Of a DNA stretch of 64,000 bases, positions 12,575 through 20,927 are shown piece after piece. How positions within the stretch are numbered: the stretch's first letter is position 1; every line of letters starts with the position of its first letter. Location of the stretch: contig NZ_CP031320.1 of assembly GCF_003355155.1 (NCBI RefSeq), positions 5,013,367 to 5,077,366 of the forward strand, given 5' to 3'. The notes under the pieces were generated by a model, which searched no databases, had not been told where the DNA came from, and saw only the letters and a list, made by a program, of their open reading frames with translations. The translations under genes were made by a program, and so were the position numbers. The stretch comes from Streptomyces armeniacus. Its GTDB lineage: Bacteria; Actinomycetota; Actinomycetes; Streptomycetales; Streptomycetaceae.

Positions 12575-14044
12575 CTACTGGCCCGGCATGAACGCCATGC
12601 CCTCCGTCGCGTTCACGATGGTGCCGTCCGGGCCGAAGAAGACCCGCACCTCGTAGAGCCCGTCCATCCCGCTCAGGAACTCGGGCATGCCGTGGTGCAT
12701 GACGTCCATGCCGAAGTGCTCGAAGTACGACGTCGCGACCGTACGCATCGTCTCCGCCCTGGTCCCGGCCGGCACCAGCCCGTTCAGCCAGCTGGCGCCG
12801 GCGCGTATGTCCTGCGTGGCCGCGCCCGGGTCGGTGCCGGGCGCGGGCAGCCGGTCGTCGGTGACCAGCAGGAACTGGTTGCCCAGCGAGGTGAACACGC
12901 CGCCGGCCACGTTCGCCGCCGTACGCGCCAGCAGGACGGCCGCCGACTCCGGCTTCGCGTACGGGGCCAGGCCGAGCCGTGCGCCGTCCAGTTCGGGCAC
13001 CGCCGCGTCCGCCGGCAGCCCGGCCTCCGCGCGGAAGCGGGCGCGTACGTCCTCGGTGCCAGGCGCCCACTCGAACCAGCCCTCCGCCAGGTCGTACCGG
13101 CCCAGCGCCCGCGTACGCAGCCCGCCACCCGGGAACCGGAGCAGCCCCGCCCCGGCGTCCCACTGCGGCATGGCGCCCACGAAGCCGAGCTCCTCGCCCG
13201 CGTACTCGATCATGCCGCCGGTGCCGCGTACCGACAGCGCCATGTGGCGCGCGGCCACCCGCAGCAGCGCCGCGGGGAACATGCCCTCGTCCGGCGCCGG
13301 CTGCGGCAACGCCGGCCGCCCCAGGGCCTGTTCGGGCACGCCGCCGTCCGCGGGCGGGCCGCCGTGCGGGCCCGTCACCGACACCCCGGTGACCGTACGG
13401 CCGCCGGTCACGTTCGCGGTGACGCCGCCGCCGTCCGGCAGCGTGGCCGACACCCGCCCCGGCCCGTACTGGGGCTCCATGCCGTGCCGCGCGCACCAGC
13501 CCTTCACGGCCTTCAGCTGCGGGACCTCGAGCTGCGCCACGACCTGGAGGTACTGCTCCAGCCGCCCGGCGCGCGGCGCGGCCGCCGGGACGGCGGGGTC
13601 GTCGGTGATCAGGAACACCGGCTCCTGCTGGTGGTTGCGGGTCACGAGGCAGCCGCGGGCGTCCAGCAGCCCCAGGCACATCGTGAGCAGCAGGTTGGCG
13701 GCGATCCTCGGGTCGGGGAAGCCGCTCAGGTCCAGCACGGGCCCGGCGAGTTCCCCGACGCCCTCGCGTGTGCCCAGCTCGCGCAGTTCCGCGGAGCGCG
13801 CCGCACCCGGCGTGTCCGACACGCGCCCGTCCGCCCACGCCCAGTGCCACGCGCCCGCGTTGTCCAGCGCGCCGATCTGGTGGGCGCGGAGGCTGATGCC
13901 GGAGCGTTCGGCCTTGGGCGTGTTCAGGTCGTAGGCGGTGGAGTCCAGCGGCACCAACTGGTCGAAGAGGTCCAGCTGTTCCAGGGACCAGAGCAGCCGG
14001 GGGCCCGCCAGGGTGAGCAGGGCATCGCTGAATTGAGCGTTCAT
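12575..14044 (-). CDS. DUF6882 protein with internally duplicated domain, last gene of B12 operon
   Basis: 489-residue cytoplasmic-looking protein of the DUF6882 type, function unknown. It contains two related halves. The first has WHWAWADG (about 66-73) and later FLITDD; the second has GWFEWAPG and FLLVTDD, both followed by sequence of similar length. This points to a tandem duplication. The ATG at 14044 overlaps the stop of the ECF S-component gene by ATGA, so translation is probably coupled. The protein is thus expressed with a transporter operon under a cobalamin riboswitch. It has no signal peptide or membrane segment. No catalytic motif is recognisable. Confidence 0.75.
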   Translation of the reverse strand: MNAQFSDALLTLAGPRLLWSLEQLDLFDQLVPLDSTAYDLNTPKAERSGISLRAHQIGALDNAGAWHWAWADGRVSDTPGAARSAELRELGTREGVGELAGPVLDLSGFPDPRIAANLLLTMCLGLLDARGCLVTRNHQQEPVFLITDDPAVPAAAPRAGRLEQYLQVVAQLEVPQLKAVKGWCARHGMEPQYGPGRVSATLPDGGGVTANVTGGRTVTGVSVTGPHGGPPADGGVPEQALGRPALPQPAPDEGMFPAALLRVAARHMALSVRGTGGMIEYAGEELGFVGAMPQWDAGAGLLRFPGGGLRTRALGRYDLAEGWFEWAPGTEDVRARFRAEAGLPADAAVPELDGARLGLAPYAKPESAAVLLARTAANVAGGVFTSLGNQFLLVTDDRLPAPGTDPGAATQDIRAGASWLNGLVPAGTRAETMRTVATSYFEHFGMDVMHHGMPEFLSGMDGLYEVRVFFGPDGTIVNATEGMAFMPGQ

Positions 14045-14973
14045 CGTGCAGTCCTTGAGATCGATTGCGGGGAATCGGTTTCAAGGACCCCGGGAGGGCC
14101 GCCGCGGTTCCCGCTCTGCTCCCGGCCGCCGGGCGCGGTGAAGGACACCGGTGCGTCGAAGGCCGCGCGGCGCGTCGCCCGGCGGAGGGCCTTGAGGACC
14201 GTACTGCCGAGGGTCAGCGTGAGAACGACCGTGAGCACCGCGCGCGGCAGGTCCCAGCCGAGTGAGGTGGCGAGGACGTAGGCGAGGAAGCGGGAGAGAT
14301 TCTCGCCGAGCGGATCACCGGGCACGAAGGAGATGCCGGAGCCGAGACCGGCGATGTACGTCCAGCCCTGCAGGTTCATCACCGTGCCGTAGAGGACGGA
14401 GGCGACGGCGCCGTAGCCGGCGAGCAGCAGCAGCTCGCGCCGCCCGCGCAGGGTGTCCGGGCGGGGCAGTAGCCCCGCGCCCATCGTCACCCAGCCCATG
14501 GACAGCATCTGGAACGGCATCCACGGTCCCACCCCGCCCGTGAGCAGCGCCGAGGCCAGCATCGACACCGCGCCCAGCACGAAGCCGAAGCCCGGCCCGA
14601 GCACCCGCCCGGACAGCACCATCAGGAAGAACATCGGCTCCAGGCCGGCGGTGCCCGCGCCCAGCGGCCGGAGTGCCGCGCCCGCCGCCGCGAGTACGCC
14701 GATCATCGCGATGGCCTTCGCGTCCATCCCGGTGTCCGCGATCGTCGCGACCACCACCGCGAGCAGCAGCGGCAGCAGCCCGGCGAACAGCCACGGCGCG
14801 TCACGGGAGTGCGCCAGCCCGGAGGCCGAGTCGGCCAGCAGCGGCCAGCCGAACGCGGCCACGCCCACCGCGGAGACCAGCGCGAGCGCCGCCACGGAGC
14901 GGGGCCCGAGGCGTACGGGCCGCACCTGCCGCACCGGGCGGGCGGCGGCGGGGGTCTCGCCGCGCGTGCTCAC
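14041..14973 (-). CDS. ECF transporter S component (predicted corrinoid-specific)
   Basis: About 310-residue membrane protein. GTG at 14973 overlaps the stop of the upstream ATPase gene (GTGA). After a basic N-terminal tail there are six hydrophobic segments. AGLEPMFFLMVLSGRVLGPGFGFVLGA and GGVGPWMPFQMLSMGW are typical of actinobacterial ECF S components of the cobalamin-linked group. Its position after EcfT and the fused EcfA ATPase, in an operon headed by a cobalamin riboswitch, makes vitamin B12 or a corrinoid precursor the likely substrate (inference). The C-terminal 40 residues are soluble. Confidence 0.82.
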   Translation of the reverse strand: MSTRGETPAAARPVRQVRPVRLGPRSVAALALVSAVGVAAFGWPLLADSASGLAHSRDAPWLFAGLLPLLLAVVVATIADTGMDAKAIAMIGVLAAAGAALRPLGAGTAGLEPMFFLMVLSGRVLGPGFGFVLGAVSMLASALLTGGVGPWMPFQMLSMGWVTMGAGLLPRPDTLRGRRELLLLAGYGAVASVLYGTVMNLQGWTYIAGLGSGISFVPGDPLGENLSRFLAYVLATSLGWDLPRAVLTVVLTLTLGSTVLKALRRATRRAAFDAPVSFTAPGGREQSGNRGGPPGVLETDSPQSISRTAR

Positions 14974-16691
14974 TCCCGCACCTCCTCGGCGTGCTTGAGT
15001 GCCGCCCGTACCTGCGGCACCGTCAGCCAGGGGCCGGGCGCCAGGATCTTGGCGACCTGCGGGGCGAACGCCGGGGAGGCCGTGACGACCTCGGGGGTAC
15101 GGCCGTCCGCCACGATGTCGCCCTCGGCCAGGATGACGACGCGGTGGGCGAGTTCGGCGGCGAGCTCCACGTCGTGCGTGGCGAGGACGATCGCGTGCCC
15201 GTCCGCGGCCAGTTCGCGGAGTACGCGGATCAGCCGCGCCTTCGCGGCGTAGTCCAGGCCGCGGGTCGGCTCGTCCAGGAGCAGCAGCGGGGGTGCGGCG
15301 GTCAGGATCACCGCAAGGGCCAGCGCCAGCCGCTGGCCCTCGGACAGGTCGCGCGGGTGCGTCGCGTCCGGTACGTCCGGCAGCAGCCGGGTGACCAGCG
15401 CGCGGCAACTGCCCGGCGGGGCGCCCGCGTCCGCGTCGGCCGCCGCGCACTCCGCGGCCACGGTGTCCGCGTACAGCAGGTCGCGCGGCTCCTGCGGGAC
15501 CAGCCCGACGTGGTGCAGCAGCTCGGCGGGCGGGGTGCGGTGCGGTACGACGGTCCGCGGCGGTGCGCCCGAGGGCGCGGGCGGGTTGCGGCGGGTGAGG
15601 CGCGCCAGCAGGCCCGTACGGGGCGCCGGTGCGGCGGCGCGGGCCGCCGGGCCCAGCCGTACGGAGCCGGAGGCCGGTTCGTGCATGCCGGTCAGCGTGC
15701 CCAGCAGCGTGGACTTGCCCGCGCCGTTGCGGCCCATCAGCGCCACCGCCTCGCCCGGACCGACCCGCAGGTCCAGGCCGCGCAGCACGTCGGTGCGGCC
15801 GCGGCGTACGGTCAGCCCCCGCAGCTCCGCCGCCGCGGGCCCGTCCGCGGTGTCCGCACGGTCCGGTTCCGGCGGCGCCGCCAGGCGGTCCCGCAGCGGT
15901 CCCGCGAGGCGGCGGGCGTCCCGTACGGACAGGGGGAGCGGCGACCAGCCGGCGAGCGCGCCGAGTTCGGCCACGGGCGGCCGCACCGGGGAGACCGGCA
16001 TGACGTCCTGCGGTGTGCCGAGCACCGGAGGCGTACCGGGCGCGGGCAGGAGCAGGACGCGGTCGGCGTACTGCACGACGCGCTCCAGCCGGTGCTCGGC
16101 CATCAGCACGGTCGTACCGAGGTCGTGCACCAGGCGCTGCAGCACCGCCAGCACCTCTTCGGCGGCGCCCGGGTCGAGCGCGGACGTCGGCTCGTCCAGC
16201 ACCAGGACGCGCGGGTGCACGGCGAGGACCGAGCCGATGGCCACGCGCTGCTGCTGGCCGCCGGAGAGCGTGGCGAGCGGCCGGTCGCGGAGCGCGGCGA
16301 GGCCGAGCAGGTCGAGTGTCTCCTCGACACGGCGGCGCATCACGTCGGGAGCGAGGCCGACGGACTCCATGCCGTAGGCGAGTTCGTCCTCGACGGTGTC
16401 GGTGACGAAGTGCGCGAGCGGGTCCTGGCCGACGCTGCCGACGACGTCGGCGAGTTCGCGCGGCTTGTGCGTACGGGTGTCGCGGCCGTCCACGGTGACC
16501 CTGCCGTGCAGGGTGCCGCCGGTGAAGTGCGGTACGAGCCCGGACACCGCGCCGAGCAGTGTCGACTTGCCGACTCCGGACGGGCCGACCAGCAGGCAGA
16601 GTTCGCCCTCGGGCACGGTCAGGTCCACTCCGTGCAGGGCGGGCGCCGGCGCGTCCTGGTAGGTCACGGAGACCTGCTCGAAGCGGATCAC
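14970..16691 (-). CDS. fused double ABC ATPase (EcfA-EcfA')
   Basis: 573-residue protein with two complete ABC ATPase domains in one chain. Domain 1 (about 1-235) has Walker A GPSGVGKST, signature LSGGQQQR and Walker B VLVLDEPTSALD. Domain 2 (about 280-560) has GRNGAGKST, the variant signature LSEGQRLALA and LLLLDEPTRGLD. This is the energising unit of an energy-coupling-factor transporter, with the two ATPases fused rather than separate. GTG at 16691 overlaps the EcfT stop (GTGA). It partners the EcfT and S component encoded on either side. Confidence 0.93.
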   Translation of the reverse strand: MIRFEQVSVTYQDAPAPALHGVDLTVPEGELCLLVGPSGVGKSTLLGAVSGLVPHFTGGTLHGRVTVDGRDTRTHKPRELADVVGSVGQDPLAHFVTDTVEDELAYGMESVGLAPDVMRRRVEETLDLLGLAALRDRPLATLSGGQQQRVAIGSVLAVHPRVLVLDEPTSALDPGAAEEVLAVLQRLVHDLGTTVLMAEHRLERVVQYADRVLLLPAPGTPPVLGTPQDVMPVSPVRPPVAELGALAGWSPLPLSVRDARRLAGPLRDRLAAPPEPDRADTADGPAAAELRGLTVRRGRTDVLRGLDLRVGPGEAVALMGRNGAGKSTLLGTLTGMHEPASGSVRLGPAARAAAPAPRTGLLARLTRRNPPAPSGAPPRTVVPHRTPPAELLHHVGLVPQEPRDLLYADTVAAECAAADADAGAPPGSCRALVTRLLPDVPDATHPRDLSEGQRLALALAVILTAAPPLLLLDEPTRGLDYAAKARLIRVLRELAADGHAIVLATHDVELAAELAHRVVILAEGDIVADGRTPEVVTASPAFAPQVAKILAPGPWLTVPQVRAALKHAEEVRE

Positions 16692-17866
16692 GGTGTCTCC
16701 TCGTCACGGTCGGCGGAGTGGCGTGCGGTGGGCGGCACCGGGGCGACGAACGCCGGCAGCAGCCCGAGCAGCACCGCCGCCGCGGGCCACAGCGGGAGTT
16801 CGGGCGCGGCCAGCGGCACGGCGGGCGGCTGGAGCGCCGCGGGCCACCGCCCGTCGGCCCAGACCAGCACCGCCGCCACGGCCGCCCCCGAACCGGCCGT
16901 CAGCCAGGCGCGCGGGCCCCAGCGGTCCGGCCGGTACCGGCTGCGTACGCTGCGCCGCCCGCCCAGCCGCAGCCCGGCCAGCGCGGCGGCCAGTCCGGCG
17001 AGCAGCAGCGGCGGCCCGTACGCGGCACCGCGCGCCGCCAGCAGCGCGTACGTGCCCGTGCAGACGCCCAGCAGCCCGCCGAGCACGAGCCCCGAGGTGG
17101 CGTGCCGTACGCCCGCGGGCACCTGTGCCGTACGCCCGTACCCGCGCGCGTCCATCGCCGCCGCCACCGCCACGGACCGCTCCAGCGCGCCCTCCAGGAC
17201 CGGCAGGCCGACCTGGAGCAGCGCCTTGACGCCGCGGTCCGCGCGGCCGCGCAGACGGCGGGCGGAACGGAGCCGCTGCACGTCGGCGACGAGGTTCGGC
17301 GCGAACGTCATCGCCACGACGACGGCGACGCCCGCCTCGTACAGCGCGCCCGGCAGCGACTTGAGCAGCCGGGCCGGGCTGGCGAGGGCGTTGGCGGCGC
17401 CGACGCAGATGAGGAGCGTGGCGAGCCGCAGCCCGTCGTACGCGGCGAACAGCATGCCCTCGGCGGTCACCCGGCCGCCGATGCGCACGCCCTGCGCCCA
17501 GTCCGGCAGCGGCACTTCGGGAAGCGTGACGAGGACGTGCGTGCCGGGGATGGGCGAGCCGAGGAAGAACGCGAACACCAGCCGGATCAGCAGCACCAGC
17601 AGTCCCAGCTTCAGGAACGCGACGTACGAGCGGGCCCACGGCGCGTCCGTACGGCGTGCCGCCACGACGTAGCCCGCGACCGCGATCAGCAGGGCGAGCA
17701 GCAGCGGGTTGGTGGTGCGGGTCGCGGCGGCGGCGAGGCCGAGTGCCCAGAGCCACCAGGCGCCGGCGTGCAGCGCGTTGCCGCGCGCCGCCTCGGGGGC
17801 GCGCAGCCGCGACGGGCGGCGCGGTCGCGACTGGCCGCGCGGTCGGCGCGGTCCGCGCGCGGTCAT
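16688..17866 (-). CDS. ECF transporter transmembrane component EcfT (CbiQ family)
   Basis: About 392-residue CbiQ/EcfT-type membrane protein. ATG at 17866 overlaps the preceding gene's stop (ATGA). It has an N-terminal basic region, helices at about 35-70 and a long loop. EcfT signature-like segments in the cytoplasmic coupling region include VQRLRSARRLRGRA and AAAMDARGYGRT; the Ala-Arg-Gly pattern contacts the ATPases. Two further hydrophobic segments at the C-terminus are an extension compared with minimal EcfT (about 260 residues). It belongs to the six-gene operon behind the cobalamin riboswitch. Confidence 0.9.
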   Translation of the reverse strand: MTARGPRRPRGQSRPRRPSRLRAPEAARGNALHAGAWWLWALGLAAAATRTTNPLLLALLIAVAGYVVAARRTDAPWARSYVAFLKLGLLVLLIRLVFAFFLGSPIPGTHVLVTLPEVPLPDWAQGVRIGGRVTAEGMLFAAYDGLRLATLLICVGAANALASPARLLKSLPGALYEAGVAVVVAMTFAPNLVADVQRLRSARRLRGRADRGVKALLQVGLPVLEGALERSVAVAAAMDARGYGRTAQVPAGVRHATSGLVLGGLLGVCTGTYALLAARGAAYGPPLLLAGLAAALAGLRLGGRRSVRSRYRPDRWGPRAWLTAGSGAAVAAVLVWADGRWPAALQPPAVPLAAPELPLWPAAAVLLGLLPAFVAPVPPTARHSADRDEETP

Positions 17867-18624
17867 CCGCGGCGGCGGCGGGTCTGCCAGAACGCTGCCG
17901 CCCCGAGGACGAGGACCGCGCCGGCACCGGCGGCGATGCCGAGACCGGCCGGCATGCCGCCGTCGGCGTCGCCCTCCGCCGCGTCCTCGCGGCCGGACTC
18001 CGCGCCGCCGTCCGAACCGCCCTTCCGCTTGCCCGAGATCTGCTCGCCGCAGCCCGACTCGGGGTAGCCCGCGATGGCGCACAGCAGCGCGTCGGAGTTG
18101 TAGCGCAGCGGCTTCGCCTCGGCGGCGAGCGCGTCGCCCGCGCTGCCGTCCTCGCCGATACGGGCGCAGGCCGTACGGGACTTGGGCGGCGTCTCGCCCG
18201 CGGGCGCGTCGGCGGCCGTACCGAAGTCGACGACCAGCGCGACGCGTTTGCTGCCCGGCTCCGGCTCCGTGTCCGCGCAGATGGTGCCGAACCCGGCCGC
18301 GCCGCGCGGCTTGGTGGCCTCGGCGGAGTCCTCGCTGACGGCGAAGCGGAAGCCGAGCACGGAGCCGTCGTCGGGGCGCAGGAAGGACGGGCCCTGCGAG
18401 GCGTACGCCCACGCGCCGTCCTTGCGCTCCCAGAACGACCAGTAGCGGTAGCCGGATTCGGCCTGCGCGGCGGCCGTCCGTACGCCAGCGGCTTCCGCCC
18501 GTACGCCCGCCGTGTCCCGTACGCCCGCCGCGTCCGCCGCAGGCGCGGGCGGCGCCACGGCGAGCAGCGCGGCCAGTGCCGCGAGCAGCGCCGGTACGGC
18601 CCCGCGGGCCATGCCCCTCGTCAC
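17863..18624 (-). CDS. SCO2322-family exported, membrane-anchored protein
   Basis: 253-residue protein of the SCO2322 family, uncharacterised. The start is GTG at 18624, overlapping the upstream stop (GTGA); ATG at 18612 is an in-frame alternative. An N-terminal signal peptide is followed by an extracellular domain beginning with GYRYWSFWERKDGAWAYAS. The domain carries several cysteines (ICAD, ACARI, LLCAIAGYPESGC), then a Gly/Asp-rich linker and a C-terminal transmembrane helix with an Arg-rich tail. It likely sits on the outer face of the membrane beside the ECF transporter. By position it could help capture or deliver corrinoid (inference). Confidence 0.8.
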   Translation of the reverse strand: MTRGMARGAVPALLAALAALLAVAPPAPAADAAGVRDTAGVRAEAAGVRTAAAQAESGYRYWSFWERKDGAWAYASQGPSFLRPDDGSVLGFRFAVSEDSAEATKPRGAAGFGTICADTEPEPGSKRVALVVDFGTAADAPAGETPPKSRTACARIGEDGSAGDALAAEAKPLRYNSDALLCAIAGYPESGCGEQISGKRKGGSDGGAESGREDAAEGDADGGMPAGLGIAAGAGAVLVLGAAAFWQTRRRRG

Positions 18625-19922
18625 AGGCCCTGCTGCTTCCGGCGGCCGCTGAGGAGGATGCCGACACCGGCACCCGCCGCCAGCCCCGCCACGACGAGCG
18701 AGACGGTCAGGACGGTGCTGCCGCCGCCGTCATCGTCGTCCCCCTTGCCGTCCTTGCCCGCCTCGTCCTTCGCGGCGTCCTTCGCCGGCGCGGAGCCCGT
18801 CGCGTTGAGCTGCTTCACGAGGTCCGTGCCGCCGAAGTCCCGTACGTCGCCGCCCGCCGCGTGCGTGGCCAGGACGAGCCCGCCGAGCGCCGCAGGGTCG
18901 GAGTCGAACTTGTCCCACTTCTTCGCGTTCTTCTCCAGCCACTCGAGCGCGCCGTCGGCCGCGTCGCCGTGGCCGCCCGCGGCGAGGGCGAGGACGGCGT
19001 CGGCGGTGTTGCTGTAGTCGGGCTGGTCCTTGGCGCCGGGCAGCGCGGAGGGGAGGTGCTGTCCGTTCTTCTTCAGCACCGCCGCCAGATACGCGGCGCC
19101 CGCCTCGGCCGCCTCGTCCGGCGACGCGTTCGCGCCCTTGTCCTGGTCGCCGCCCTCGCACTTCAGCGCGGCCGGCGCGCTGCCCTTGCCCTCCGCGGGC
19201 TCCACGGCCAGCCCTTCGCCGCGCGCCGCGAGCGCGGCCGCGGCCGTCGCGTCGTCGTTGGGGGCGAGGGCGCCCTTCTTGTCCGGCTGGTACGCGAACG
19301 CCCCGCGCTCGCCCGACTTGGCGCCGCAGCCGAGCTGGAGGCCGAGGAGCGCGTCGTACGGAGTCGCCTCGGCGTCCTTCGCCGCCTTCGCGGGAACGGC
19401 CTCGGCCGGGTCCTCACCCGCCGCGGCCAGCGCCCCGATGACGACGGAGACGGAGTTCGCGTCGGTGGGGCTGCCGGGGTTGTAGCCCCAGCCGCCGTCC
19501 TCGTTCTGCACCGACTTCAGCCACTTCACGGCGCTTTGCACGGCGTCGCTCTGTCCGCCGAGCGCCGAGAGCGCCTGGACGGCGGCGGCCGTGGCGTTCA
19601 CGTCGGGGACGGTCTTCTTGCCGCACTCCGCGCCCGTGTCCGCGCGGTACGCCGTGAACGAACCGTCGTCGCACTGCTGGTCCGCCAGCCACGCCACGGC
19701 CTTGTCCGTCGGGTCCACGCCCACGGTGTCCTGCGCGAGCAGCGCGACCGACTGCCGCCAGACGCCGTCGTACTTCGGATTGCCCTTCCCGTACAGCCCG
19801 TCGTCACCGGCCGCCGCTGCTGCCGCTTCCGGCGCTGCGGGGGCGGCGAATGCCAGCGGTGCCGCGGCCGTACACAGCACGGAGGCGGCGAGGAGCACGG
19901 CGCTGCGGCGCAGAGACGACAT
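18621..19922 (-). CDS. secreted alpha/alpha-barrel (prenyltransferase/squalene-oxidase repeat) protein, transcobalamin-like
   Basis: 433-residue exported protein. Residues 1-27 are a signal peptide. About 50-370 contain repeats of the prenyltransferase/squalene-oxidase type, such as KAVAWLADQQCDDGSF, SAVKWLKSVQNEDGGWGY and ADGALEWLEKN, predicting an alpha-6/alpha-6 barrel. A charged Lys/Asp linker (about 375-405) leads to a single C-terminal transmembrane helix with a basic tail. The same barrel fold is used by animal transcobalamin and intrinsic factor to bind B12. With a cobalamin riboswitch directly upstream and an ECF transporter downstream, I infer a cell-surface corrinoid-binding role rather than terpene chemistry. 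No catalytic DxDD motif is seen. Confidence 0.85.
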   Translation of the reverse strand: MSSLRRSAVLLAASVLCTAAAPLAFAAPAAPEAAAAAAGDDGLYGKGNPKYDGVWRQSVALLAQDTVGVDPTDKAVAWLADQQCDDGSFTAYRADTGAECGKKTVPDVNATAAAVQALSALGGQSDAVQSAVKWLKSVQNEDGGWGYNPGSPTDANSVSVVIGALAAAGEDPAEAVPAKAAKDAEATPYDALLGLQLGCGAKSGERGAFAYQPDKKGALAPNDDATAAAALAARGEGLAVEPAEGKGSAPAALKCEGGDQDKGANASPDEAAEAGAAYLAAVLKKNGQHLPSALPGAKDQPDYSNTADAVLALAAGGHGDAADGALEWLEKNAKKWDKFDSDPAALGGLVLATHAAGGDVRDFGGTDLVKQLNATGSAPAKDAAKDEAGKDGKGDDDDGGGSTVLTVSLVVAGLAAGAGVGILLSGRRKQQGL

Positions 19923-19999
19923 GACGGATGCCTTTCGGTGGGCGGGACGCAGCCGTGCACGGCCGTCCCGCCCCGCGGACGCGCTCCGCGCGGTGGCAC

Positions 20000-20205
20000 T
20001 CCGGGCTCAGCTCCGTATACCTCGACGGTGCCGGGGCCGCCGCTCCGCGCTGCGGCGGCGGGCGGCTCCGGGAGCCTTGCCGACGGCCGGGCGCTCCGGC
20101 TTGGCGGCCGTACGCGGTGCGTACGCGTACGGGGCGCCGTTCACGGTTGCGGGTCAGCGCCGGATTCGCACCGGCTTCCCCCGGTCGAGGGCAGTCTTCC
20201 GCGTC
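20000..20205 (-). ncRNA. cobalamin riboswitch
   Basis: Reading the minus strand from about 20205, the conserved cobalamin-aptamer core is clear. It contains GGGGAAGCCGGTGCGAATCC, then GCTGACCCGCAACCGTGA (the B12-box region, spanning about 20142-20182). Further on comes AAGCCGGAGCGCCCGGCC (about 20084-20103), the typical downstream conserved arm. It ends about 80 nt before the ATG of the barrel-protein gene, leaving room for an RBS-masking or terminating platform. High cobalamin is expected to shut off the six-gene transport operon. Confidence 0.95.
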
Positions 20206-20276
20206 CACTCTAAGGGAGCGCCGGCGTCGCGCCTCCAGCCGGGAGGGGCGGTACGCCCCGTACGCCGGTTCTCACG

Positions 20277-20927
20277 TCAGCGCGCCCCCGCGGTTTCCGT
20301 CGCCCCGCCGTCCCCGTCGACGCGATCGCTCGCGTGGTCGATCAGCGTGCACACCGTCTCGATGTCGACCCGCACCTGGGTGATCGAGGCGCGCCCCGAC
20401 AGCCAGGTGGTGAGCGCCGAGTGCCAGGTGTGCTCGATCACCCGCACCACGGAGAGCTGCCGCGGCGTGGGCGGCGCGTACTCCGGGCCCATCGCGTCCA
20501 GGATGATCGCCGTCGTCAGCCGCGAGACGGCGTCCACCTCGGCGCCGGCCGACCGGTCGGCGAACGTCAGGGCCCGCACCATCGCGTCCGCCAGCTGCGG
20601 TTCGCGCCGCATCGCGCGGAAGGCGCGCATCAGCGTCTCGGCGACCCGGGCCGCCGCGTCGGACTGCGCCGGCGGGTCCGTGTGCAGGCTGTCGCGCATG
20701 CGCTGGAGCTGGTCGTGCATGGTCGCGACGAGCAGGTGCACCTTGGACGGGAAGTAGCGATAGAGGGTGCCGAGGGCGACCTGCGAGAGCTCGGCCACCT
20801 CCCGCATCTGCACGGCCTCGAAACCGCCGCGCCGCGCGAGCCGCGTGCTGGCGCGCAGGATGCGCCGCCGCCGTGCCTCCTGGCGTGCGGTCAGCCGCGG
20901 CGGGGACGGCTTGGGGTGTGTCGTCAT
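20277..20927 (-). CDS. kstR: KstR-like TetR-family repressor
   Basis: 216-residue TetR-family regulator. The DNA-binding domain (about 20-70) reads ILRASTRLARRGGFEAVQMREVAE...VALGTLYRYFPSKVHLL. This is very close to KstR, the mycobacterial and rhodococcal repressor of sterol catabolism, whose ligand is a steroid-CoA thioester. The divergent gap holds an exact match to the KstR operator pattern TnnAACnnGTTnnA at 21073-21086, so autoregulation and control of the divergent operon are likely. No sterol-degradation genes adjoin it, although acyl-CoA dehydrogenase and MaoC genes occur further along. Confidence 0.82.
   Translation of the reverse strand: MTTHPKPSPPRLTARQEARRRRILRASTRLARRGGFEAVQMREVAELSQVALGTLYRYFPSKVHLLVATMHDQLQRMRDSLHTDPPAQSDAAARVAETLMRAFRAMRREPQLADAMVRALTFADRSAGAEVDAVSRLTTAIILDAMGPEYAPPTPRQLSVVRVIEHTWHSALTTWLSGRASITQVRVDIETVCTLIDHASDRVDGDGGATETAGAR

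What the first reader, a model, noticed from the sequence alone, without database searches (positions are those of the whole stretch)
14970..20205. Cobalamin-riboswitch operon encoding a transcobalamin-like surface protein plus ECF transporter
A clear B12 riboswitch precedes overlapping genes. They encode a secreted, membrane-anchored alpha/alpha-barrel protein, an SCO2322-family exported protein, EcfT, fused EcfA-EcfA' and an S component. The barrel fold is the one animal transcobalamin and intrinsic factor use to hold B12. This suggests a bacterial surface capture device handing corrinoid to an ECF transporter, distinct from BtuBCDF.
Basis: partly seen in the sequence, partly recalled or inferred. 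Interest (0 to 1): 0.78.

Follow-up and report, generated by a model that had tools for sequence, protein, structure and literature searches.

The report
Split, rewired transcobalamin-like B12 uptake operon
Streptomyces carry a vitamin-B12-sensing RNA switch in front of genes for what is probably a B12 importer, with two cell-surface proteins that resemble the two halves of our own B12-carrier protein but are separate and each circularly rearranged.

Summary
On the minus strand a cobalamin riboswitch (20198-20073) precedes five genes overlapping by 4 nt: SCO2321-family alpha/alpha barrel, SCO2322-family protein, EcfT, EcfA-EcfA', and an S component ending at 14041, beyond the given range. Rfam scores the riboswitch just below its cut-off (30.2 vs 31.5 bits), but a model from 36 related leaders finds it at E 2.6e-17 and in 43 of 44 further leaders. 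In 53 Actinomycetota genomes, 35 of 55 S genes have a same-strand cobalamin riboswitch hit within 12 kb upstream (16 over Rfam's cut-off). A few relatives place CobU after S or fuse barrel and beta domain in one protein.

Best reading: a corrinoid importer fed by a transcobalamin-like surface pair, a design predicted for low-GC Gram-positives in 2007 (PMC1796856). New here: in Streptomyces it is split into two anchored proteins, each a circular permutation of other actinobacterial versions; reversing the halves in silico raises profile scores in 36 of 36 beta and 38 of 38 barrel proteins. Corrinoid binding is inferred, not shown; homology of the barrel to transcobalamin is not shown by sequence.

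The parts
20207..20212 (-). -10-like box TAGAGT
   Evidence: read from the sequence; a TAnAGT box stands in the same place just 5' of the aptamer in most of the orthologous leaders printed
20073..20198 (-). cobalamin riboswitch aptamer, short form beginning at P3 (P1/P2 not recognised)
   Evidence: RF00174 30.2 bits, below gathering 31.5; own covariance model E 2.6e-17; covariation
20010..20028 (-). conserved leader element CCGTCGAGGTATACGGAGC, able to form a small hairpin, role unknown
   Evidence: read in the window; in 80 related leaders 51 match a strict pattern and 28 are near-matches holding GTCGAGG; absent in L048
18621..19922 (-). SCO2321-family exported alpha/alpha barrel with hydrophobic N- and C-terminal segments (433 aa)
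19146..19796 (-). barrel part P1 (residues 43-259), first in Streptomyces, second in most relatives
18795..19145 (-). barrel part P2 (residues 260-376), second in Streptomyces, first in most relatives
17863..18624 (-). SCO2322-family exported, C-terminally anchored beta-domain protein (253 aa)
   Evidence: NF040672 219.1 bits; hydropathy
18325..18453 (-). beta-domain half A (residues 58-100, GYRYWSFWE..DGSVLGFRF)
18043..18252 (-). beta-domain half B (residues 125-194, VALVVDFG..LLCAIAGYP)
16688..17866 (-). EcfT transmembrane component (392 aa)
   Evidence: PF02361 37.7 bits; ARG motif at residue 240
14970..16691 (-). fused EcfA-EcfA' ATPase (573 aa)
   Evidence: PF00005 172.9 bits, two stretches; two Walker A, signature and Walker B motifs
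14041..14973 (-). S component (310 aa), GTG start overlapping the ATPase stop
   Evidence: PF12822 33.5 bits, cut-off 30.7; family matched in 57 of 198 Actinomycetota genomes at E <= 0.001

Best explanation
This is a cobalamin-riboswitch-controlled corrinoid uptake operon. When coenzyme B12 is scarce the leader lets the five overlapping genes be expressed. SCO2321 (alpha/alpha toroid) and SCO2322 (beta domain) are exported and held at the membrane by C-terminal helices. They work like the two domains of transcobalamin: together they sandwich an extracellular corrinoid (cobalamin and probably cobinamide) and present it to the S component, which topples and releases it into the cell when the EcfT-EcfA-EcfA' motor hydrolyses ATP. 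In the Streptomyces lineage the device is split into two polypeptides and each is a circular permutation of the form found in most of the other actinobacterial relatives examined. Shown here by computation: riboswitch, operon anatomy, conserved gene set, anchor-like segments, permutation, linkage to cobalamin riboswitches across the phylum and, in a few loci, to salvage genes. Inferred: corrinoid as substrate, binding by the pair, hand-over to S.
For: Riboswitch with covariation, in the 36 model-building leaders and 43 of 44 others. S genes have a same-strand RF00174 hit (E <= 0.001) 0-12 kb upstream in 35 of 55 cases in 53 genomes, 16 of the 35 over Rfam's cut-off; about 0.15 expected. CobU lies directly after S in 3 of 136 loci (L112, L170, L171), with CobS too in L112. 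In 20 loci picked by their S hit among those not fetched before, barrel found in 13 and beta domain in 13; 6 of the 7 without a barrel are cut by a contig end close upstream. Barrel and beta domain are fused in one frame in L172, L176 and L185, L185 with three CWB2 cell-wall repeats. Barrels with SLH in 2 of 23 and CWB2 in L109. Of 20 loci fetched for DUF4430, 12 hold an S relative, 9 a barrel and 12 of 18 scanned a cobalamin riboswitch family. The genome carries CobN, CbiB, CobQ and a separate cobalt ECF (CbiM, CbiQ) behind other cobalamin riboswitches. Permutation: 37 of 37 SCO2322 rows A-B, 39 of 39 SCO2321 rows P1-P2; reversing the halves in silico raises the score in 36/36 and 38/38.
Against: No binding or transport datum. 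The barrel profiles match terpene cyclases in the PDB, not transcobalamin, among rows shown; transcobalamin is not among the 50 rows. SCO2322 has no DUF4430 hit and no credible PDB fold match; its unpermuted relatives align to DUF4430 only weakly (probability 8.8%), and Pfam's DUF4430 does not hit the three fusion proteins at E up to 0.1. The S family finds no solved S component, CbrT included. 20 of 55 S genes show no upstream riboswitch. 3 of 20 DUF4430 loci (L141, L146, L149) hold no barrel, S or ECF hit. The genome carries B12 biosynthesis genes and a further candidate corrinoid importer, so the need is not obvious. No barrel was found beside S in L167 or L112.
Confidence: 0.68

Rival explanations
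1. The operon imports a corrinoid, but the two surface proteins do not bind it; they are structural or receptor-interacting accessories, and S alone captures substrate.
For: CbrT binds cobalamin by itself (binding studies mentioned in passages of PMC5997447). The barrel lacks sequence similarity to transcobalamin. L112 has S and a beta protein but no barrel was detected.
Against: Barrel and beta domain found in 13 of 20 S-centred loci each; fused in three loci; a DUF4430 profile built here scores weakly on the same region of the fused L185 protein; both proteins have export and anchor-like segments.
Confidence: 0.15
2. A B12-regulated importer for a B12 precursor other than a corrinoid, for example alpha-ribazole or dimethylbenzimidazole (CblT-like) used in nucleotide-loop assembly.
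For: CobU and CobS beside S also fit salvage of the lower-ligand side; passages of PMC8123684 list 'cblTS' for DMB uptake; that CblT is an ECF S component is recalled.
Against: A roughly 330-residue toroid plus beta domain would be an oversized receptor for a small base; transcobalamin-type pairs bind whole corrinoids (passages of PMC1796856).
Confidence: 0.08
3. A cobalt ECF transporter under B12 control.
For: EcfT belongs to PF02361 CbiQ; in this genome a CbiM/CbiQ cobalt ECF is itself behind a cobalamin riboswitch.
Against: That separate cobalt system already exists; the window S component is not CbiM; cobalt needs no large surface receptor (general knowledge).
Confidence: 0.05
4. The barrel is a terpene cyclase or prenyltransferase-like enzyme that merely lies in the operon.
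For: Best sequence and fold matches are squalene-hopene and drimenyl-diphosphate cyclases.
Against: The DxDD[TS] motif is present in only 2 of 39 family members and 1 of 23 relatives; the protein looks exported and anchored; the operon is linked to cobalamin riboswitches.
Confidence: 0.03

Closest known systems
[quoted passage not shown] 2007, PMC1796856; passages read)
   Same: Secreted or anchored alpha/alpha toroid plus beta-grasp domain, encoded with CbiO/CbiQ-like ECF genes, predicted to scavenge B12 or precursors.
   Different: Here the two domains are separate proteins, each circularly permuted, in an actinobacterium with B12 biosynthesis genes; the beta domain escapes the DUF4430 model. 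The 2007 paper says its carriers usually lacked key B12 biosynthesis enzymes.
Animal transcobalamin / intrinsic factor
   Same: Two-part design: alpha/alpha toroid and beta domain; fusions of the two exist in relatives.
   Different: No PF01122 hit for the window barrel; split and permuted; membrane-anchored; coupled to an ECF transporter.
ECF-CbrT of Lactobacillus delbrueckii (PMC5997447, passages read)
   Same: ECF transport of cobalamin and cobinamide is a proven principle.
   Different: CbrT uses the same ECF module as FolT2; here S, EcfT and fused EcfA-EcfA' lie in one operon. No detectable sequence match of this S family to solved S components.
BtuG surface lipoproteins of Bacteroides (PMC6143338, passages read)
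   Same: Surface corrinoid capture feeding a transporter encoded in B12 loci.
   Different: Seven-bladed beta-propeller lipoprotein acting with BtuB, unrelated fold.
CbiMNQO cobalt ECF transporter
   Same: EcfT of the CbiQ Pfam family, riboswitch control.
   Different: S component is not CbiM; a genuine CbiM/CbiQ locus exists elsewhere in the genome.

Membership tests
Cobalamin riboswitch (RF00174) | score at or above Rfam gathering score | tested here: not met
   30.2 bits vs 31.5; the window's own site is the weakest of 7 in the genome
Cobalamin riboswitch (RF00174) | conserved core (P3, P4, P5, P6) with covariation | tested here: met
   24 pairs, 10 with compensatory change, P4 invariant; family model E 2.6e-17 in the window
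Cobalamin riboswitch (RF00174) | binds adenosylcobalamin and switches expression | not testable with these tools
   needs in-line probing or a reporter
ECF transporter with its own module | EcfT, two EcfA ATPases and S component in one operon with intact ATPase motifs | tested here: met
CbrT-type cobalamin S component | sequence relationship to CbrT | tested here: inconclusive
   profile search of solved structures lists no S component
Transcobalamin-like toroid + SLBB proteins | alpha/alpha toroid domain | tested here: met
Transcobalamin-like toroid + SLBB proteins | match to Eukaryotic cobalamin-binding protein PF01122 | tested here: not met
   no hit for the window barrel; 1 of 23 relatives below cut-off
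Transcobalamin-like toroid + SLBB proteins | DUF4430 / transcobalamin beta-grasp domain in SCO2322 | tested here: not met
   not among the families matched by 37 members at E up to 5; none in the genome at E <= 0.001; weak profile link through unpermuted relatives
Transcobalamin-like toroid + SLBB proteins | corrinoid binding | not testable with these tools
   needs protein
Class II terpene cyclases | DxDD motif | tested here: not met
   DxDD[TS] in 2 of 39 family members and 1 of 23 relatives
CbiMNQO cobalt transporter | CbiM substrate component | tested here: not met
   window S hits PF12822, not CbiM; CbiM lies at another locus

The most novel reading that the evidence does not exclude
Streptomyces turned a one-chain transcobalamin-like receptor into two separately membrane-anchored half-receptors and re-cut both at new termini, so that the C-terminal anchors leave each half at a different point and the open corrinoid-binding face is aimed at the S component. 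The corrinoid would be clamped between two tethered proteins only at the transporter mouth: a membrane-assembled transcobalamin, nearly universal in a genus known to make B12 itself.
Probability: 0.35. Interest if true: 0.78.

Novelty: new variant of a known kind. Interest (0 to 1): 0.62.

Why it matters
SCO2321 and SCO2322 are functionally unnamed Streptomyces proteins; SCO2321 is over its family cut-off in 143 of 150 Streptomyces genomes. A testable role as the two halves of a bacterial transcobalamin would fill a gap in Gram-positive B12 acquisition and give an evolutionary counterpart to the animal B12 carriers. It would also be an unusual case in which both partners of a two-part ligand receptor have been circularly permuted. 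Streptomycetes are described as able to make cobalamin de novo (PMC4991794, passage), so a conserved uptake operon would suggest that B12 producers also retrieve corrinoids competitively.

Tried and rejected
Rfam at gathering threshold on the window found nothing; resolved with a permissive scan and an own covariance model. A first pattern for the B12 core was wrong and found 0 of 80; the corrected one found 72 of 80, and the model, built on 36 of the 80, found 43 of the other 44. PDB fold searches of the SCO2322 model gave no credible match; a permuted fold would defeat sequential aligners, so this is uninformative. Transcobalamin is not among the 50 rows shown for the barrel, which does not exclude it. 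The best PDB row for my DUF4430 profile was not transcobalamin but a putative metal-binding protein (3u7z, E 0.022), with transcobalamin-1 second (E 0.26) and transcobalamin-2 sixth (E 1.7). Profile-profile comparison of the unpermuted beta domain with DUF4430 is weak, so I do not claim SCO2322 is a DUF4430 member. The S profile found no solved S component. DUF6882 (12575-14044) and the KstR-like TetR gene (20277-20927) were considered as operon members and rejected: DUF6882 matches occur in 2 of the 80 loci, distant from the operon, and the TetR gene lies at varying places or is absent. In one search I used 55 of the 63 match rows, dropping the own genome, four fragments of G032, one fragment of G194, G081 and G017; 19 of the 35 positive riboswitch hits are below Rfam's cut-off; 20 of the 55 had no upstream hit, some on short contigs (such as G108, G040, G058, G070) and three in Streptomyces (G193, G023, G107) under the stricter filters of that search. 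The chance figure assumes a mean genome of 4.2 Mb. Of the 20 loci fetched, 18 were scanned for riboswitches (L155 and L159 were not). In L111, L117 and L118 the riboswitch over cut-off is not directly upstream of the ECF genes on their strand. In one search two relatives (L103, L118) came out P1-P2, but their weak P2 hits overlap the P1 hit; four others had only one part found; L142 repeats the gene of L111.
Full report
OBSERVATION. The window lies in an 8.08 Mb single-contig genome; the 80 relatives fetched with the barrel are all Streptomyces or Streptomycetaceae. On the minus strand five genes overlap by 4 nt at each junction: SCO2321 family (19922-18621), SCO2322 family (18624-17863), EcfT (17866-16688), EcfA-EcfA' (16691-14970), S component (14973-14041). 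SCO2321 and SCO2322 have hydrophobic N-terminal stretches, as signal peptides do, and C-terminal hydrophobic segments followed by basic residues. One paper uses the signal sequence of S. coelicolor SCO2321 as source of a delivery peptide and calls the protein hypothetical (PMC9237094, passages).

RIBOSWITCH. Rfam at gathering threshold reports nothing in the window; the permissive scan gives RF00174 at 30.2 bits, 1.3 below the cut-off. Comparative evidence settles it. In the 80 loci a corrected core pattern finds 72. A covariance model from 36 leaders, without the window, finds the window site at E 2.6e-17 and 43 of the 44 remaining loci, missing L046. RNAalifold on 45 leaders gives 24 pairs, 10 with changes on both sides; P3 and P6 covary while P4 is invariant. 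A -10-like TAGAGT box lies just upstream, so the transcript probably begins close to P3, which would explain the low Rfam score (inference).

REGULON. Of seven RF00174 sites in this genome, others precede CbiM and CbiQ (cobalt ECF), CbiB and CobQ, CobN, class Ia NrdA, and an ABC permease with a substrate-binding protein whose best models are putative F420-0 transporter parts, with BtuC next for the permease, below cut-offs. The site near the chromosome end (L160) was not assigned. So the strain has B12 biosynthesis genes (the whole pathway was not checked), a separate cobalt ECF and another candidate corrinoid importer, which argues against a cobalt role for the window operon.

CONSERVATION. 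SCO2321 is over its cut-off in 143 of 150 Streptomyces genomes. All five genes are in order in 60 of 61 loci long enough to test. In the phylum the S family is matched in 57 of 198 genomes. Of 55 S genes in 53 genomes, 35 have a same-strand RF00174 hit (E <= 0.001; 16 over Rfam's cut-off) 3.4-9.0 kb upstream, against a crude expectation of about 0.15 in total. Of 20 loci picked by S hit among those not fetched before, 13 have the barrel and 13 the beta domain. Some relatives carry SLH or CWB2 domains, one a sub-threshold LPXTG-anchor match, on the barrel protein. CobU follows S directly in L112, L170 and L171 (the latter two matched over the kinase part, 34-35% identity), with CobS in L112 (136 loci examined).

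TRANSCOBALAMIN ANATOMY. In L172, L176 and L185 barrel and beta domain lie in one frame; L185 also carries three CWB2 repeats. The L185 beta region scores 75 bits with the profile of unpermuted relatives and 14.9 bits with a DUF4430 profile built here, though Pfam's own DUF4430 model does not list it at E up to 0.1. DUF4430, described as a C-terminal domain of transcobalamins (PMC4350170, passage), occurs in 34 of 198 actinobacterial genomes. Of 20 loci fetched around it, 12 hold an S relative and 9 a barrel, while L141, L146 and L149 show neither nor ECF genes; 12 of the 18 scanned have a cobalamin riboswitch family. In L140 riboswitch, DUF4430, barrel, beta protein, EcfT and EcfA are contiguous. 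The DUF4430 profile weakly picks transcobalamin-1 (E 0.26) and transcobalamin-2 (E 1.7) in the PDB, the former behind one unrelated-looking protein and the latter among further weak rows.

CIRCULAR PERMUTATION. SCO2322 half A (GYRYWSFWE..GSVLGFRF) precedes half B (VALVVDFG..LLCAIAGYP) in 37 of 37 Streptomyces rows and in L112. In 5 of the other 12 relatives both halves are found in the order B-A; in the remaining 7 only half A is detected, with B upstream by alignment. SCO2321 parts run P1-P2 in 39 of 39 rows, whereas 29 of 31 distinct relatives in which both parts are found run P2-P1; the two exceptions have weak overlapping hits, and four relatives show only one part. Reversing the halves in silico raises the best-domain score against the unpermuted profile from a median of 34 to 72 bits for the beta domain (36 of 36; 38 to 103 of 105 columns) and from 144 to 209 bits for the barrel (38 of 38; 176 to 280 columns). 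The AlphaFold model of SCO2322 has three strands, then two strands and a helix, as expected for a beta-grasp domain cut before its third strand (inference from the fold description in PMC1796856 and PMC1949818, passages). One Streptomyces genome (G171) carries both a permuted and an unpermuted system.

MECHANISM. Most likely a corrinoid is captured outside the membrane between SCO2321 and SCO2322 and handed to S, then imported by the EcfT-EcfA-EcfA' motor; expression is off when B12 is plentiful. Shown by computation: anatomy, regulation element, conservation, linkage, permutation. Inferred: ligand, sandwiching, hand-over.

PRIOR WORK. Burroughs et al. 2007 (PMC1796856; passages) already predicted toroid + SLBB surface proteins beside CbiO/CbiQ genes as B12 scavengers, mainly in low-GC Gram-positives; the words Streptomyces and 'permut' do not occur in its main text. 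CbrT showed that an ECF transporter imports cobalamin and cobinamide (PMC5997447, passages). A review lists CbrUVT as uptake genes (PMC8123684, passages). In S. coelicolor B12 riboswitches are reported for nrdABS and eight other genes or clusters (PMC4991794, passages, citing a paper I could not read); a S. lividans paper reports two (PMC8079986, passages). A search for SCO2321-SCO2325 found only the peptide paper named above. The rows listed by searches (several of them capped lists) hold no title on this operon. Only open-licence papers are searched, so absence there is weak evidence.

VERDICT. Observation confirmed with corrected ends. It is a new variant of a predicted kind, with the split and double permutation as the new element.

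Noticed in passing
window 20010-20028 (-): A leader element (CCGTCGAGGTATACGGAGC) between aptamer and start codon has a strict match in 51 and a near-match in 28 of 80 related leaders and can form a small hairpin; its role (expression platform, kissing loop or other) is unexplained.
   Followed up: partly
L046, L031, L033, L057, L078 upstream of the barrel: In a few Streptomyces the aptamer is not found (L046) or looks degraded while the operon is kept, suggesting loss of B12 control.
   Followed up: partly
L111 (G171): A Streptomyces genome carries a second, unpermuted barrel-beta-ECF system with a DUF4430 gene close downstream, besides the permuted operon.
   Followed up: partly
L113 (G204): Two barrel-beta pairs stand in tandem before the ECF genes, with four cobalamin riboswitch hits within 18 kb.
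   Followed up: no
L109: Two long barrel-like proteins with CWB2 cell-wall-binding repeats stand in tandem before the ECF genes.
   Followed up: no
L160 (own genome, 8070000-8080600): The highest-scoring cobalamin riboswitch of the genome lies near the chromosome end among frames that by eye look like pieces of polyketide/peptide synthases and CysD; its target gene was not identified.
   Followed up: partly
window 12575-14044 (-): A DUF6882 protein overlaps the end of the S gene by 4 nt but DUF6882 matches occur in only 2 of 80 related loci, so it is probably a recent neighbour.
   Followed up: partly
window 20277-20927 (-): A TetR regulator related to KstR (181.5 bits, below the equivalog cut-off 280) lies just upstream on the same strand; not a conserved direct neighbour.
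   Followed up: partly
S. coelicolor SCO2321 signal sequence (literature): A 2022 paper derived a transdermal delivery peptide from the signal sequence of SCO2321, the first gene of this operon's family, and calls the protein hypothetical (PMC9237094, passages).
   Followed up: yes
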